From Eubacteriales bacterium (GTDB lineage Bacteria > Bacillota > Clostridia > Acetivibrionales > JANLFN01): a stretch of DNA of 64,000 nucleotides. Each line of letters begins with the position of its first letter. Position 1 is the stretch's first letter. Below the pieces are notes generated by a model. The model had not been told where the DNA came from, did no database searches, and saw only the letters and a program-made list of their open reading frames with translations. The position numbers and the translations under genes were made by a program. The stretch lies in the NCBI GenBank assembly GCA_024655885.1, contig JANLFN010000010.1:1-64000 (forward strand), given 5' to 3'. This document shows positions 5,637 through 60,772 of the stretch, one piece after another.

Positions 5637-5660
5637 AGGCGTATTTGACCACCTTTCTTG

Positions 5661-5740
5661 ATTCATGCTGAAATGTTGGCTGCGCAAATGCTGAGATTTT
5701 GCTACACAAAGGCTGAGATGTTCGCTTCACGAATGCCGAG
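5661..5740 (-). repeat. Tandem 22-23 bp hairpin repeat (module C), 3.5 copies
   Basis: On the minus strand the units read CTCGGC/CTCAGC/CTCAGC/TTCAGC, each followed by a small inverted repeat. Copies are 5718-5740 (arms ATTCGT and GCGAAC around GAA), 5696-5717 (TTTG/CAAA), 5673-5695 (imperfect) and a truncated copy to 5661. It is the same unit as at 51551-51693. It ends beside the cwlJ ribosome-binding site. Confidence 0.75.
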
Positions 5741-5788
5741 TCTCTTGCCCCGGCAGTAGAAAGGTTGAAGTAGTTCTTATAAGGCGTT

Positions 5789-5900
5789 CAAGGTTAAGGT
5801 TGTAGCTGTTCTTACCGGCGGTTCAAGGTTAAGAACGCACAAAGCTTTTTTCAACCTCAGCCTTGCCCTTCTCCGAAGCTCTTCTGCAACCTTAACCTTG
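5789..5900. repeat. 14-bp perfect inverted repeat (AAGGTTAAGG / CCTTAACCTT)
   Basis: CAAGGTTAAGGTTG (5789-5802) and CAACCTTAACCTTG (5887-5900) are exact reverse complements. The same AAGGTTAAGG/CCTTAACCTT pair occurs at 22983-22993 and 23115-23125. It appears to be an inner arm of a larger mirrored repeat element. Confidence 0.7.
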
Positions 5901-5956
5901 CCCTTCTCCAGAGCCCATCTCCAACCTTAGCCTTGCCATTCCCCAAAGCCCATCTC
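5852..5956. repeat. Three tandem 35-bp repeats (module B)
   Basis: Units 5852-5886, 5887-5921 and 5922-5956 are each exactly 35 bp. They share CAACCT, then CCTTGCC, TTC, CC and an AAGC/GAGC-type block near the end. A related single copy on the opposite strand occurs at about 51461-51496 (GGTTGCAG...GGAGAAGGGC). No coding function is visible. Confidence 0.75.
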
Positions 5957-5960
5957 CAGT

Positions 5961-5989
5961 CTCAGCCTCTCAGCCCTCAGCTTCTCAGC
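5961..5989 (-). repeat. CTCAGC tract (module A)
   Basis: Four CTCAGC hexamers are separated by CT, C and TT. The tract mirrors GCTGAG motifs at the other side of this non-coding block (5712). It is the same family as the tracts at 22948, 23131, 49931, 51419 and 58876. Confidence 0.75.
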
Positions 5990-6207
5990 TTTTTATAATA
6001 CAGTATATTAACATAACCTATAAGAGGTAACTGAAAAGCCGCTTTTTTTACAAATAATTATTTAAATCCATAATAAAAGAACTTAAGCAAATATTTCATC
6101 GTTTTAAATACGGATACCGGTAAAAAATAAAATTGCAAGGCTTGCAAAAGGGAGGCGCCGTTGATTTGAAAAACAGGCCTCCCTGCCTTGAAAAGGAGGA
6201 ATGAGCT

Positions 6208-22947: not shown

Positions 22948-23186
22948 GCTGAGAAGCTGAGGGCTGAGGGGCTTCTGCGATACAAGGTTAAGGCTGCTTT
23001 TGCCTCAAATAGGGAACCTCTGACAGTTTAGCCCTCACCTCTAACTCCTCTCCCGCATCAGGAGAGGAGAATCCTCTCCTTTACATACTCTGGGGTGTCT
23101 TTCCTCATTGCTTTCCTTAACCTTGACTTTCTCAGCCCTCAGCTTCTCAGCCCTCAGCCTTCTCAGCCCTCTCAGCCCCTCAGCTA
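22948..23186. repeat. Long mirrored repeat element built from GCTGAG/CTCAGC and AAGGTTAAGG/CCTTAACC
   Basis: The left end (22948-22976) holds GCTGAG motifs and the inner left arm is CAAGGTTAAGG (22983-22993). The inner right arm is CCTTAACCTTG (23115-23125), and the right end (23131-23183) is seven CTCAGC motifs separated by short pyrimidine spacers. The centre has GGAGAGGAG/CTCCTCTCC hairpins. It is an imperfect inverted repeat of about 240 bp between loaP and the convergent peptidase gene, and it touches the peptidase stop codon. Confidence 0.75.
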
Positions 23187-48992: not shown

Positions 48993-49970
48993 ATGGCAAA
49001 GTATTTGGTGACCGGCGGTGCCGGTTTTATCGGCTCCACCATTGTGGAGCGTCTGGTGGAGCGCGGGTACGAGGTCCGGGTGGTGGACAACCTGTCCACA
49101 GGCAAACTTGAAAATATACAGGGGCTGATGGGCAAAATAGAGTTCCTCTGCGGCGACCTGGCGGACTTTCGCGTGGCGGAAAGGGCGGTGGACGGCGTGG
49201 AGTACATCCTGCACCAGGCGGCGCTTCCTTCGGTGCCGCTGTCGGTGAGCGACCCCGTGGCCGTTAACCGGAGCATCGTGACCACCACCGTCAACCTTTT
49301 TAAAGCGGCGGCCGACGGCAAAACCGTAAAAAGAATAGTACAGGCCGTATCTGCGGCGGCTTACGGGGATTCCCCCCAGCTTCCCAAGAGGGAGGATATG
49401 GACCCCGATCCTTTGTCCCCCTACGCGGCTGCAAAGCTGGCCCAGGAATACTACGGGAGGGCCTTCTGCAATGTCTATGGCCTGGAAATATTATCCCTCC
49501 GCTACTTTAACGTGTTTGGCCCCAAGCAGGATCCCAAATCCTTTTACGCCGGGGTGATACCTATTTTTATTTCCCGGATGCTGCAAAACAAGAGGCCCAC
49601 CATTTTTGGCGACGGACTTGCCAGCCGGGATTTTATCTATATAGATAACGTGGTGGAGGCAAACCTTGCGGCGTGTACCTGCCAATGGCCGGGAAGGGCC
49701 GAGACCGTCAATATCGGGAGCGGCAGGTCCATAAGCTTGAACGGGCTGGTTGACAAGCTGAATGGGATTTTAGGCACAAAATTGTCTCCTGTCTACGCAG
49801 AGGCGAAAGCCGGCGATGTGAGGCATTCGGTGGCGGATATAGCCAAAGCCCGGGAACTGCTGGGCTATGAGGTTAAAGTTGATTTTGACGAAGGGCTGGC
49901 CAGGCTGGTTGAGTGGTTCAAAGGGAGAGAAGCTGAGAAGGCTGAGGGGCTGAGGAAGCTGAGAGGCTGA
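48993..49970 (+). CDS. NAD-dependent nucleotide-sugar epimerase (GalE/WbpP-like)
   Basis: The 325-residue extended SDR has TGGAGFIGSTIVERLVERG, LHQAALPSVPLSVSDP, YAAAKLAQEYY (catalytic Tyr/Lys) and RDFIYIDNVVEANL, close to UDP-GlcNAc/UDP-Glc C4 epimerases. In the serine motif, the usual SSS(A/V)YG is replaced by AVSAAAYG, leaving only one Ser, which may weaken activity or mark a subfamily. The last 15 or so residues (REAEKAEGLRKLRG) are encoded by GCTGAG repeat sequence, and the stop TGA lies inside a GCTGAG copy. GGGAG precedes ATG. Confidence 0.8.
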   Translation: MAKYLVTGGAGFIGSTIVERLVERGYEVRVVDNLSTGKLENIQGLMGKIEFLCGDLADFRVAERAVDGVEYILHQAALPSVPLSVSDPVAVNRSIVTTTVNLFKAAADGKTVKRIVQAVSAAAYGDSPQLPKREDMDPDPLSPYAAAKLAQEYYGRAFCNVYGLEILSLRYFNVFGPKQDPKSFYAGVIPIFISRMLQNKRPTIFGDGLASRDFIYIDNVVEANLAACTCQWPGRAETVNIGSGRSISLNGLVDKLNGILGTKLSPVYAEAKAGDVRHSVADIAKARELLGYEVKVDFDEGLARLVEWFKGREAEKAEGLRKLRG

Positions 49971-49975
49971 GGCAA
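49931..49975 (+). repeat. GCTGAG tract running through the 3' end of an epimerase gene
   Basis: Five GCTGAG/CTGAG copies with A/G-rich spacers span the last 13 codons and the stop of the 48993 gene. The direction matches the walR and peptidase cases, with GCTGAG on the coding strand. Confidence 0.75.
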
Positions 49976-50724: not shown

Positions 50725-51420
50725 GTGAATAAAAAAATTCTTATTGTCGACGATGAGAAGAATATTGTCGATATCCTCAAATTCAACCTCAAAAAAGAAG
50801 GCTTCGAGACAATGGAAGCCTATGACGGGGAACAAGCCGTTGACATGGCATTGAGCCAGAAACCGGATTTGATACTGCTGGATATCATGCTGCCGAAAAT
50901 GGACGGTTTTACTGTTTGCCGCAAAATCAGGCAGGAGTCTTCCACTCCCATTTTAATGCTGACGGCGAAAGAGGAGGAAGTGGATAAGGTCCTGGGACTG
51001 GAACTGGGGGCGGATGATTACATTACCAAGCCCTTCAGCCCAAGGGAGCTGATGGCCAGGGTAAAGGCCAACCTGAGGAGGACCGTGCCCGAGGAATCCC
51101 TGAAAAGTGCGGGCAACTGCATAAGATGCGGAAGTGTGGTAATCGATATGGACCGCTATGAGGTAAGGCGGGACGGCACGGTGATTGAACTGACGCTGAG
51201 GGAGTTTGAGCTGGTAAAATTCCTTGCACTCCAGCCGGCCCAGATTTTTTCGAGGGAAAGCCTCCTGGAAAAAGTATGGGGCTATGAGTATTACGGGGAC
51301 GTGCGCACGGTGGATGTCACCGTGAGGCGGATCAGGGAGAAGCTGGAGAGGGATCCGGCAAATCCTGAATATATTCTCACCAAAAGAGGCGTGGGGTATT
51401 ATTTCAATAAATTGTGCTGA
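50725..51420 (+). CDS. walR: Response regulator WalR (OmpR family)
   Basis: The 231-residue protein has a receiver domain (about 1-118) with phospho-acceptor D53 in LLLDIMLPKMDG, plus D8/D9 and K102-type residues (IVDDEKN; DDYITKPFSPREL). A winged-helix DNA-binding domain (about 130-230) follows: LTLREFELVKFLA, KVWGYEYYGDVRTVDVTVRRIREK and YILTKRGVGYYF. It controls wall-hydrolase and envelope genes. GTG 50725 follows GGGAGTG. Its identity as WalR rather than PhoP rests on the yycH-yycI-walJ neighbours. The stop TGA lies inside a GCTGAG motif starting a repeat array. Confidence 0.88.
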   Translation: MNKKILIVDDEKNIVDILKFNLKKEGFETMEAYDGEQAVDMALSQKPDLILLDIMLPKMDGFTVCRKIRQESSTPILMLTAKEEEVDKVLGLELGADDYITKPFSPRELMARVKANLRRTVPEESLKSAGNCIRCGSVVIDMDRYEVRRDGTVIELTLREFELVKFLALQPAQIFSRESLLEKVWGYEYYGDVRTVDVTVRRIREKLERDPANPEYILTKRGVGYYFNKLC

Positions 51421-51500
51421 GAGGCTGAGAAAGCTGAGAAGCTGAGAGCTGAGGGGCTGAGGTTGCAGAAAGGCTTTGGAGAAGGGCAAGGTTAAGGCAA
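51419..51500 (+). repeat. GCTGAG array plus one 35-bp-type unit between walR and walK
   Basis: The tract runs GCTGAG x6 with short purine spacers (51417-51463) and starts at the walR stop. GGTTGCAG and GGAGAAGGGCAAGGTTAAGG (51461-51496) follow, the reverse complement of the 35-bp unit at 5852-5956. Confidence 0.75.
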
Positions 51501-51550
51501 AAGAGCTGAGGAAAAGATAAAGGCGAAAAGAGTGGAAAAATTTTTCAGCT

Positions 51551-51693
51551 CTCAGCATCCGTGAAACGGATATCTCAGCCTTGCGAAGCAGGAGACTCAG
51601 CATTCGCAGAGCGAATATCTCAGCATTTACGCAGCAAAGTTTCAGCGTTTGGGAAGCAAACAACTCAGCGCTCAGCATTCATGAAATGAATAT
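51551..51693 (+). repeat. Six tandem 22-23 bp repeats, each with its own hairpin (module C)
   Basis: Units start at 51551, 51574, 51596, 51619, 51641 and 51671. Each has CTCAGC (or TTCAGC) followed by an inverted repeat that differs between copies: ATCCGT/ACGGAT, CTTGC/GCAGG, ATTCGC/GCGAAT, imperfect, GTTTG/CAAAC and ATTCAT/ATGAAT. An extra 7-bp CTCAGCG lies at 51664. The paired arms change together. It lies in the walR-walK mRNA. Confidence 0.8.
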
Positions 51694-51724: not shown

Positions 51725-53524
51725 ATGTTTTTGAAGAGTCTGCAGTGGAGACTTGTATGGATATTCATGGCAATTACCGTTTCTATCACCATCGTAATAT
51801 GGTTTTGGCTTAATCAGTCGGTAGAGCTGTCCTATTATCAAACCTTCAAGAAGGATATCGAAAGGAACTACAACAACTGGGAGATGAAGGACAACCCAAG
51901 CCCCGAGGAGATTATCTACGATTTAAGGGAAAACAGAAACTCCATTCTTATTTTCCGGGTAAGAGACTATTTGAGCATTACGGTATTTGATAAAAAACAG
52001 AATAAAATCATCTATTCCTCCGATTCGAAGTACAATAATTCCAATAACCCCGAAGGGTTCTACTACGACATTTTGAAGTCCAAAAACCTGAACGAGGTGC
52101 TGCTGGGCAGTGAAAAAGGGGATCAAAATCCCCGTGCCGCAAAGGACAATGACGGGAGGGTGTTTTTTGACTATGCCCGGTCCAAAGGGGACTTCATAGT
52201 GTATTTCAGGTTTTACCGGGAAGAGTGGGGCGGAATTATCGACAAGTTCAACAATATTTTGCTGGTAGGATGCGTATTTGGCATTGTGGCCTCCATGGCC
52301 TTGGGGTATATCCTTTCCAAAACCATTACCGTTCCCATCGTGGATATCATGCATAAAGCCCAGAGGCTTGCGGCAGGCGATTTTGACCAGGCACTGGCCG
52401 TGAAGTCGGATGACGAGATCGGCAAACTGACCGGCGCCTTCAACTACATGGCGGGAGAGCTGAAAAATACCTTGCTGGAAATCTCCCGGGAAAAGAACAA
52501 GATTGAAACGATTTTGAATTATATGACGGACGGTATCATCGCATTTAACCTGCAGGGAGAGGTCATTCACGCCAACCCGGCTTCCCGGAAGATGCTGGGG
52601 GTGGGAGAGTTTGACAAAAACTTTAATGATTTTTCCCGCCAGTATGAATTGGGGATCCGTCTTGAGGATGTGCTGTACCTCGGCTCCACAGGGAATAAGG
52701 AGAGGAACGTGGAGGTGGATGGCCGGTATCTAAGGGTGCATTTTGTGGTGTTTACGGATGAGGAGGATAAGGCAGGCGGCGTTATTGCCGTACTTCAGGA
52801 TATCACCGAGCAGGAGAAGCTGGATAAAATGAGAAGGGAATTTGTTGCAAACGTGTCCCACGAATTGAGGACCCCGCTGACTTCCATAAAAAGCTATGCA
52901 GAAACGCTGATGGACGGGATTTTGGAGGACAGGGACACCGCAGAGAGGTTTTTGAGCGTCATAAACTCGGAAGCGGACAGGATGACGCGGCTTGTAAAGG
53001 ACCTCCTGCAGCTTTCCAGGTTTGACAGCCGGCAAATGCAGTGGAATATTCAGGACCTGTCCTTTGTAGACCTGGTGACGGGCACCGTTGAGAAAATGCA
53101 GCTGGAAGCCAGGGACAAGGACCTCTGCGTGGAGAGCTACGTCATAGGGGATATACCGAATATAAAAGGGGACCGGGACAGAATTGAGCAGGTTGTGCTG
53201 AATGTGCTGAGCAATGCGGTCAAGTATACTCCCCGGGGAGGCAAAATCACCGTCTATATCGGGAAAATTTACAGCGATGTGTATATGAAGGTTGTAGACA
53301 CGGGAATAGGCATACCCCGGGAAGACCTGCCAAGGATATTCGAGAGGTTTTACAGAGTTGACAAGGCGCGCTCCAGGGAGATGGGGGGCACCGGCCTGGG
53401 ACTTTCCATAGCCCGGGAAATTGTGGAGGCCCATGGGGGGACCATATCGGCCAGCAGCGAGGTGGAAAAGGGCACCGAGATTACGGTGAGCCTGCCCGTA
53501 CAAGGGCTTGCCCGGGAGATGTAA
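51725..53524 (+). CDS. walK: Sensor histidine kinase WalK
   Basis: The 599-residue membrane kinase has TM1 (about 10-32), an extracytoplasmic sensor (about 33-172) and TM2 (about 175-197). HAMP (about 198-250, ending near ADGDF-like AAGDFDQALAV) and PAS (about 265-365, IIAFNLQGEVIHANPASRKMLGVGE) follow. HisKA has H379 in FVANVSHELRTPLTSIKSYAE, and HATPase_c has VLSNAVKYTP, DTGIGIPREDLPRIFERFYRVD and GGTGLGLSIAREIVEAHGG. ATG 51725 follows GAGGTG; in-frame sequence upstream is repeat DNA. It is the partner of WalR and is restrained by YycH/YycI. Confidence 0.9.
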   Translation: MFLKSLQWRLVWIFMAITVSITIVIWFWLNQSVELSYYQTFKKDIERNYNNWEMKDNPSPEEIIYDLRENRNSILIFRVRDYLSITVFDKKQNKIIYSSDSKYNNSNNPEGFYYDILKSKNLNEVLLGSEKGDQNPRAAKDNDGRVFFDYARSKGDFIVYFRFYREEWGGIIDKFNNILLVGCVFGIVASMALGYILSKTITVPIVDIMHKAQRLAAGDFDQALAVKSDDEIGKLTGAFNYMAGELKNTLLEISREKNKIETILNYMTDGIIAFNLQGEVIHANPASRKMLGVGEFDKNFNDFSRQYELGIRLEDVLYLGSTGNKERNVEVDGRYLRVHFVVFTDEEDKAGGVIAVLQDITEQEKLDKMRREFVANVSHELRTPLTSIKSYAETLMDGILEDRDTAERFLSVINSEADRMTRLVKDLLQLSRFDSRQMQWNIQDLSFVDLVTGTVEKMQLEARDKDLCVESYVIGDIPNIKGDRDRIEQVVLNVLSNAVKYTPRGGKITVYIGKIYSDVYMKVVDTGIGIPREDLPRIFERFYRVDKARSREMGGTGLGLSIAREIVEAHGGTISASSEVEKGTEITVSLPVQGLAREM

Positions 53525-58875: not shown

Positions 58876-58935
58876 GGCTGAGAAAGCTGAGGGGCTGAGG
58901 CGCTTTCAGCGCAGGCTGAGGGCGCGGCGCCGCTT
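58876..58935 (-). repeat. GCTGAG array with GCGC hairpin units between walJ and rlmH
   Basis: GCTGAG copies occur at 58877, 58886, 58894 and 58915. On the minus strand 58898-58920 reads CTCAGC, then CTGCGC-TGAAA-GCGC, then CTC, a variant of the 23-bp hairpin unit. A GGCGCGGCGCCGC palindromic stretch follows (58921-58933). Confidence 0.65.
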
Positions 58936-59842: not shown

Positions 59843-60772
59843 CTATATTCTGCAGTCGGCCAATTCATCAAAGATGCCTTTATATATGGAATTCTCTCTG
59901 CTAATCAGCTCATATCCCTTGTCGCATAATCTCGAACACCCTGAGATTGTTATATTGTATATACTGCTGCTTATGTCTTTATAACTGAGGCCGCACAATA
60001 CCCTTAATGCATATGCCGTGAATGCTCTGAATTCATATACTTTTCTTCTATATCCTGCAGCACGGCTATCTTTTTCCGCCGTCATCAGCTTTCCTGAAAT
60101 ATAGCTTATTACTTTTGAAGGCTGTATATCCCTTAGTATTATTTTCTTACCGCTGATATATTCATATTCTGCAGCTTTTTCCAGCCTTTTTTTCATTTCC
60201 TTGAGGCTTCCTATATCTCTTTGGTGGCTTACAAACGCAAAATACTTTTCCGCAAATTTCTTTGAATTATCCTTATTAAAAAGTCCCATGATAAAGCTTG
60301 TATCCACGAGGTTTTGAAAGTCCTTTCTCTGTCCTAAATATATTCCATAGGAAGAATACTTGTAATTTTCCTCTTTTCCTGCATAACCTTCAATATCATG
60401 GGCATTATTGTGGATGTATGCCGAAACGGCCAGATTGTATTCATCAGTGTCCAATATCCTGCTCTCAAACCTGTCCTGGAATACATGCCCATGCCTGTTA
60501 TACTTTTTATTATAATACCTGACATAGGCTGTATTGATGCTGTGCATGAATTTCGATACGTCAAAGCCGTTTGGGTCAAGGTGAAGATGCAAATGGCTGT
60601 CCATAAGACAGTAAGCATATATGTGGCACTGATATTTTTCTTTGTATCTTTTTAATAGCCCAATGTAATAATCCTTGTCGTCATCGTCTCTAAAAAGCAT
60701 AAATTCGGATACACTGCGGCACATTATGTGAAAAATCGCTTCAGGATGCTTTTCACGAGCTTTTCTCGGCAT
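59843..60772 (-). CDS. REP-associated tyrosine transposase (TnpA_REP, Y1/HUH family)
   Basis: The 309-residue protein has an IS200/Y1-like N-terminal domain (about 10-130): ARQ-like PRKAREKHPEAIFHIMCRS start, YLM-like YCLMDSHLHLHL with the HUH metal motif (H60, H62) and YVRYYNKKYNRHGHVFQDRF with the catalytic Tyr candidates Y83/Y86. A C-terminal region of about 170 residues with an HTH-like AYALRVLCGLSYKDISSSIYNITISGCSRL (DnaA-like) follows. It is transcribed against the neighbouring genes. Such transposases mobilise or maintain dispersed palindromic repeats. Confidence 0.88.
   Translation of the reverse strand: MPRKAREKHPEAIFHIMCRSVSEFMLFRDDDDKDYYIGLLKRYKEKYQCHIYAYCLMDSHLHLHLDPNGFDVSKFMHSINTAYVRYYNKKYNRHGHVFQDRFESRILDTDEYNLAVSAYIHNNAHDIEGYAGKEENYKYSSYGIYLGQRKDFQNLVDTSFIMGLFNKDNSKKFAEKYFAFVSHQRDIGSLKEMKKRLEKAAEYEYISGKKIILRDIQPSKVISYISGKLMTAEKDSRAAGYRRKVYEFRAFTAYALRVLCGLSYKDISSSIYNITISGCSRLCDKGYELISRENSIYKGIFDELADCRI

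What the first reader, a model, noticed from the sequence alone, without database searches (positions are those of the whole stretch)
51551..51693. Tandem 23-bp repeat with copy-to-copy covarying hairpin arms
Six units share CTCAGC but their following inverted repeats differ in sequence while staying self-complementary: ATCCGT/ACGGAT, CTTGC/GCAGG, ATTCGC/GCGAAT, GTTTG/CAAAC and ATTCAT/ATGAAT, mostly around a GAA or AGA turn. Changing both arms together indicates selection or generation of hairpins rather than of sequence. The array lies inside the walR-walK transcript, just before an essential kinase. I know no named bacterial repeat of this form.
Basis: seen in the sequence. Interest (0 to 1): 0.85.

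Follow-up and report, generated by a model that had tools for sequence, protein, structure and literature searches.

The report
Comb-like repeat element between operon genes
The small covarying hairpins are one half of a roughly 280-base inverted-repeat element, one of about 28 in this clostridial genome, that can fold into a comb; a related bacterium has elements of the same layout in the same gene gaps but with different repeat sequences.

Summary
The hairpins at 51551-51693 form the 3' arm of a larger element (51416-51693). Its 5' arm is (GCTGAG N1-3)n, starting at walR's stop codon. GCTGAG pairs with the CTCAGC clamps, so a single strand is predicted to fold as a stem with side hairpins. 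The genome holds about 28 such dispersed elements, 11 with hairpin arrays, nearly all in short gaps between co-directional genes (walR-walK, mnmE-mnmG, rpsG-fusA, hemB-hemL, ilvD-ilvB). Hairpin arms covary: 28 both-side changes against 10 expected; 0/500 shuffles reach this, P=0.015 in a tree-based count. No hairpin or GCTGAG family was found in 60 relatives. In the one same-family genome, 6 of 11 orthologous gaps hold inverted heptamer arrays with different cores (P=0.0007, or 0.011 against a stricter background). G-U and A-C mismatches are equal (51:46). That argues against strong RNA selection and favours DNA-level slippage, inter-locus copying and arm-to-arm template switching. No associated mobile enzyme was found: the six RAYT-type genes carry other repeats. 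The kind of element is known (BIME, BOX, cyanobacterial STRR). The interleaved-hairpin comb and the change of core at shared sites appear new.

The parts
51416..51461 (+). 5' arm: six GCTGAG clamps spaced 1-3 nt; the TGA of the first is walR's stop codon
   Evidence: relatives end WalR at the same residue region with their own stop and no such array
51462..51540 (+). central module (GGTTGCAGAAAGGCTTTGGAGAAGGGCAAGGTTAAGG...), with a seventh GCTGAG at 51505; same module in other elements of the genome, 75-87% identical
51541..51693 (+). 3' arm: CTCAGC clamps alternating with 13-15 nt hairpins; pairs with the 5' arm into a comb
   Evidence: mean probability 0.75 that a CTCAGC base pairs with a GCTGAG base
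51557..51571 (+). hairpin 1 ATCCGT-GAA-ACGGAT
   Evidence: stem probability 0.94
51580..51592 (+). hairpin 2 CTTGC-GAA-GCAGG (one wobble)
51602..51616 (+). hairpin 3 ATTCGC-AGA-GCGAAT
51625..51639 (+). hairpin 4, imperfect ATTTAC-GCA-GCAAAG
51647..51661 (+). hairpin 5 GTTTG-GGAAG-CAAAC
51677..51691 (+). hairpin 6 ATTCAT-GAA-ATGAAT
5660..5990 (-). second hairpin-bearing element in the window, before a cell-wall-hydrolase-like gene
22948..23184 (.). element without hairpin array between convergent genes: (GCTGAG)3 ... (CTCAGC)7
49932..49972 (+). single-arm (GCTGAG)5 cluster at the 3' end of an epimerase-like gene
58877..58920 (+). GCTGAG cluster with hairpin GCGCTTTCAGCGC, upstream of rlmH-like gene
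50725..51420 (+). walR/yycF-like response regulator
   Evidence: NCBIfam YycF 341 bits, above cut-off
51725..53524 (+). walK-like sensor kinase (HAMP, PAS, HisKA, HATPase_c)

Best explanation
The feature is the 3' arm of a dispersed, modular inverted-repeat element that resides in gaps between co-directional genes. Shown: the 5' arm is a tandem array of a 7-9 nt unit (GCTGAG core), the 3' arm carries the complementary core, and in this genome the 3' arm of 11 elements also holds small triloop hairpins between the clamps, so one strand is predicted to fold as a stem with side hairpins. Shown: different elements share long homologous mosaic blocks, so their contents have been copied between loci. 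Inferred: the complementarity is made and kept mainly by DNA-level processes. Slipped-strand mispairing lengthens the short unit, template switching at quasi-palindromes copies one arm onto the other and keeps hairpins perfect, and conversion or transposition-like copying spreads successful versions. Inferred: the elements persist where they are tolerated, between a stop codon and the next Shine-Dalgarno, and the folded mRNA may tune or decouple neighbouring genes as a side effect rather than as the reason they exist.
For: Dispersed family and layout. Predicted comb fold. Mosaic homology between unlinked loci, ending with the element (W51 vs L062b 217 bp at 75%; L063 vs L064 118 bp at 85%; L063 vs L075 144 bp at 80%). 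Clustering of 9 of about 28 elements on a 112-kb contig, P=2e-7, fits copying to nearby places. Covarying hairpins. In same-family genome G001, orthologous gaps hold inverted arrays whose two arms match each other but whose core differs from element to element (AATTGAG, AATAGGT, AGATTAT, GTTGACA/GTGTAC, GTTCAGA). Mismatches in stems are strand-symmetric, G-U 51 against A-C 46; a 75% G-U share is rejected at 1.5e-6. Template switching is a documented way to create and mend hairpin stems (PMC8794818).
Against: No closely related genome was available to catch a template-switch or slippage event directly. In all 11 hairpin-bearing elements the hairpins lie on the 3' side relative to the downstream gene, which a purely neutral process would not demand. 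The tree-based covariation P is only 0.015. Loop composition (24 of 25 loops end in A, 17 of 25 start with G) hints at some structural preference.
Confidence: 0.5

Rival explanations
1. Selected mRNA structure: the comb is an intercistronic RNA that stabilises, processes or translationally decouples the two cistrons, and the hairpins covary because mRNA pairing is selected.
For: Nearly all hairpin elements lie between co-directional genes, a few nt after a stop and 20-90 nt before a start, with hairpins on the 3' side in 11 of 11. Hairpins covary. Sense-strand folds are slightly more stable than antisense for most hairpin elements.
Against: G-U and A-C mismatches are equally common (51:46). 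Shuffle z-scores are no better for sense than antisense. Many other elements lie outside such gaps or have one arm only. walR-walK gaps of relatives lack any such element.
Confidence: 0.22
2. Non-autonomous mobile element: arms and hairpins are recognition structures of a transposase acting in trans (REP/RAYT or IS200/IS605 style, or a classical MITE).
For: Dispersed copies with shared blocks. Conserved hexamer followed by a hairpin of free sequence resembles guide plus hairpin of Y1 elements. Six Y1_Tnp genes exist in the genome.
Against: In the flanks of the Y1_Tnp genes that were read in full the repeat is GGGGACGGTTCT, with no CTCAGC cluster (part of the output was cut). No fixed termini or target duplications seen. 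Elements at shared sites differ wholly in core between genera, and copy number of clamps and hairpins varies freely.
Confidence: 0.22
3. Intrinsic terminators, attenuators or a known regulatory RNA.
For: Stable hairpins in gaps before genes.
Against: No U-run after the hairpins and no terminator-like site at the array; no Rfam match in the window.
Confidence: 0.06

Closest known systems
[quoted passage not shown]
   Same: Degenerate 7-nt tandem units on both sides that base pair into one hairpin, vary in copy number, and take extra inserts that do not follow the heptamer
   Different: That case is one intron stem; here it is a dispersed gap element with regular hairpins between the clamps, in Clostridia
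Pneumococcal BOX elements (boxA-boxB(n)-boxC; PMC3049150)
   Same: Dispersed modular intergenic element, terminal parts pair, internal hairpin modules vary in number
   Different: BOX modules are conserved in sequence and have TIRs, target duplications and a candidate mover; here hairpin sequences vary and the clamp recurs between hairpins
BIME / REP elements and REPINs with RAYT transposases
   Same: Mosaic palindromic intergenic repeats in operons; RAYT genes are present in this genome
   Different: REP hairpins are sequence-conserved and flank their RAYT; here the RAYT genes carry a different repeat
TAACTGA heptamer arrays of Beggiatoaceae (PMC4679880)
   Same: 7-nt tandem arrays in gaps, oriented to the genes, in essential operons
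   Different: Direct repeats only, no complementary arm, no hairpins
Quasi-palindrome template-switch mutation (PMC8794818)
   Same: Produces perfect stems and simultaneous both-arm changes
   Different: A mutation process, not an element family

Membership tests
REP/BIME mobilised by RAYT (Y1 transposase) | RAYT gene flanked by the same repeat | tested here: not met
   Six Y1_Tnp genes; the flanks seen carry GGGGACGGTTCT repeats and no CTCAGC cluster (output partly cut)
REP/BIME mobilised by RAYT (Y1 transposase) | palindrome conserved in sequence between copies | tested here: not met
   arms vary with compensation
BOX-type modular element | modular parts with variable number of internal hairpin modules | tested here: met
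   1-6 hairpins per element, shared blocks
BOX-type modular element | boxA/B/C sequence, TIR and target duplication | tested here: inconclusive
   No comparison with BOX sequences and no Rfam hit in the window; no clean empty site from a close strain to see target duplications
STRR-like heptamer arrays | tandem degenerate unit of about 7 nt | tested here: met
   clamp spacing 7-9 nt; tandem score at period 6-9 highly significant in six of the 11 orthologous gaps of G001
STRR-like heptamer arrays | two complementary arrays that pair (Nostoc P6b form) | tested here: met
   (pairing predicted, not measured)
STRR-like heptamer arrays | common descent with cyanobacterial STRR | not testable with these tools
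   units too short and variable
Rfam RNA family | match above gathering score | tested here: not met
   0 matches in window
Rho-independent terminator | GC hairpin followed by U-run | tested here: not met
Plasmid-borne repeat | similar sequence on plasmids | tested here: not met
   only short chance matches, best E 0.3

The most novel reading that the evidence does not exclude
A class of gap-resident inverted arrays in which architecture is inherited but sequence is not: the same gaps between genes keep a pairing element over genus-level time, while its short core is replaced as a whole on both arms, and in one lineage the arm has become a comb of self-complementary, freely varying hairpins kept by structure alone.
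Probability: 0.35. Interest if true: 0.8.

Novelty: new variant of a known kind. Interest (0 to 1): 0.57.

Why it matters
Covariation is usually read as proof of functional RNA. Here strong covariation occurs in a dispersed repeat where the mismatch pattern shows no preference for RNA pairing, so the family could separate selection for structure from mutational creation of structure. If orthologous gaps really keep the element while its core sequence is replaced, it would be a natural test case for template-switch and concerted evolution inside essential operons.

Tried and rejected
RAYT/Y1 transposase as mover: six genes found, the repeats in the flanks seen are of another family. Terminator or internal promoter: nothing above shuffle expectation at the array. 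Known RNA family: none in Rfam. Plasmid relatives: none. Translated N-terminal extension of the downstream protein: the array is open in the gene's frame in only about 4 of 11 cases and conserved starts have their own Shine-Dalgarno. Clamp-number correlation between arms: rho 0.55, P=0.08, inconclusive. Sense-strand preference by fold z-score: none. Literature searches by sequence string and by heptamer or interspersed-repeat terms found no description of these clostridial elements.

Full report
What is in the window. Upstream, at 51416-51461, lie six GCTGAG hexamers spaced by 1-3 nt, with a seventh at 51505; the TGA of the first GCTGAG is the stop codon of walR. GCTGAG is the reverse complement of CTCAGC. 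The whole stretch 51416-51693 is therefore one inverted-repeat element: a compact 5' array of clamps, a central purine-rich module, and a 3' array in which each clamp is followed by a 13-15 nt hairpin. Folding predicts a long stem made of GCTGAG/CTCAGC pairs with side hairpins. In the ensemble the clamps pair with probability 0.75 and five hairpins are well formed. The smallest relative, L062a, shows the same comb clearly, with clamp pairing at 1.00.

Genome-wide. Pattern searches gave 63 hits of GCTGAG triplets and none for the reversed pattern, and 22 hits of the framed hairpin against none reversed. A covariance model found 28 matches, 23 of them at E below 0.03; many of these are the units the model was built from. 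These group into about 28 elements, by my own count of clusters of three or more hexamers. Eleven carry the hairpin array. They lie between walR and walK, mnmE and mnmG, rpsG and fusA, hemB and hemL, ilvD and ilvB, argC and argB, two hydrogenase-type subunits, and similar pairs (names from the sequences, not all checked by profile). For the copy at 5.66 kb the upstream neighbour is uncertain. Others have clamps only, or one arm only, at the 3' end of a gene. Nine of the 28 are on this 112-kb contig (P=2e-7). Elements share mosaic blocks: for example 217 bp at 75% between the window element and L062b, and 118 bp at 85% between L063 and L064.

Covariation. In 25 aligned units 93% of stem cells pair, 28 cells carry a change on both sides (10 in shuffles, 0/500 as high), and slid controls fail. 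A tree-based count, which does not credit inherited pairs twice, still gives an excess (5 against 1.75, P=0.015). A collinear example: ATCCGT/ACGGAT in the window against ATTTGT/ATGAAT in L074, within a block 84% identical.

Strand test. Pairing selected on the transcribed RNA should tolerate G-U and avoid A-C. Hairpin stems show 11 against 7, long arms of this genome 14 against 10, and long arms of the relative G001 26 against 29. The pooled 51:46 rejects a true G-U share of 0.75 (P=1.5e-6) and of 0.65 (P=0.008). Fold z-scores are as negative on the antisense as on the sense strand. This argues for DNA-level generation or maintenance. I did not run a positive control on known structural RNAs.

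Relatives. Neither the framed hairpin nor the GCTGAG array occurs as a family in 60 related genomes; isolated hits are at control level or in coding repeats. Named relatives were found through WalK (best Anaerobacterium chartisolvens, 57%). Their walR-walK gaps are short and empty of the element. The one same-family genome, G001, also has no element in walR-walK, before murI, before nuoF or before moxR. It does have inverted tandem arrays in the rpsG-fusA, ilvD-ilvB, mnmE-mnmG, homocitrate-synthase-like, mutS and purH-purD gaps, and by eye a single-arm array in leuC-leuD. Their cores are AATTGAG, AGATTAT, AATAGGT (twice), GTTGACA/GTGTAC and GTTCAGA, and the two arms of each element match each other. 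An automatic call gives 6 of 11 against 19 of 95 sampled co-directional gaps of 50-420 nt. After removing the overlapping gaps, Fisher P is 0.0007 against all sampled co-directional gaps and 0.011 against those of 50-420 nt. The sample is partly biased towards contigs fetched for other reasons, and simple ORF calling mislabels some gap orientations. Shared permissive sites with independent insertion cannot be excluded.

Mechanism. I favour slippage plus template switching plus inter-locus copying at DNA level (confidence 0.5). Template switching is a documented creator and mender of stems (PMC8794818). A selected mRNA element and a trans-mobilised element remain rivals. Against the latter, six Y1_Tnp genes exist, but the flanks I could read carry a different repeat.

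Known relatives by kind. BOX elements (PMC3049150) are modular with internal hairpins. In the Nostoc tRNA-Leu intron, degenerate heptamers on both sides pair into one hairpin and accept inserts (PMC3488679). TAACTGA arrays (PMC4679880) share the heptamer unit and the gap location. None has clamps alternating with sequence-free hairpins. Searches by sequence string found no description of the clostridial arrays, within an open-access library only.

Verdict. It is a new variant of modular gap repeats, not a new biochemical system.

Noticed in passing
window 60404-60739 (-): RAYT-like Y1 transposase gene, one of six in the genome; the flanks read around other copies carry GGGGACGGTTCT repeats.
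   Followed up: partly
L193:8194-8561, L195:10931-11123, L187:4232-4387 (genome G001): The same-family genome carries many gap elements built of other heptamers (GTTCAGA, GTTGACA, AATAGGT), in roughly 10-20% of sampled co-directional gaps.
   Followed up: partly
L201:12029-12296 and L210:13401-13536: This genome also has heptamer arrays with another core (GTTTAAC/GTTTAAG), one of them between ribosomal protein genes.
   Followed up: no
L073, L077, L079, L081, L082: A second element type without the triloop array, with GCATTATAC hairpins outside the clamps and 4-nt-loop hairpins such as GAGGC-GGAT-GCCTC between clamps.
   Followed up: no
window 51557-51691 and other units: Loops are mostly GNA (GAA, GCA, GTA); from memory such triloops are unusually stable in DNA (GCGAAGC), which would fit a DNA-level origin.
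   Followed up: no
contig C7 of the genome (112 kb): Nine of about 28 elements sit on 3% of the genome, as if copying is local.
   Followed up: partly
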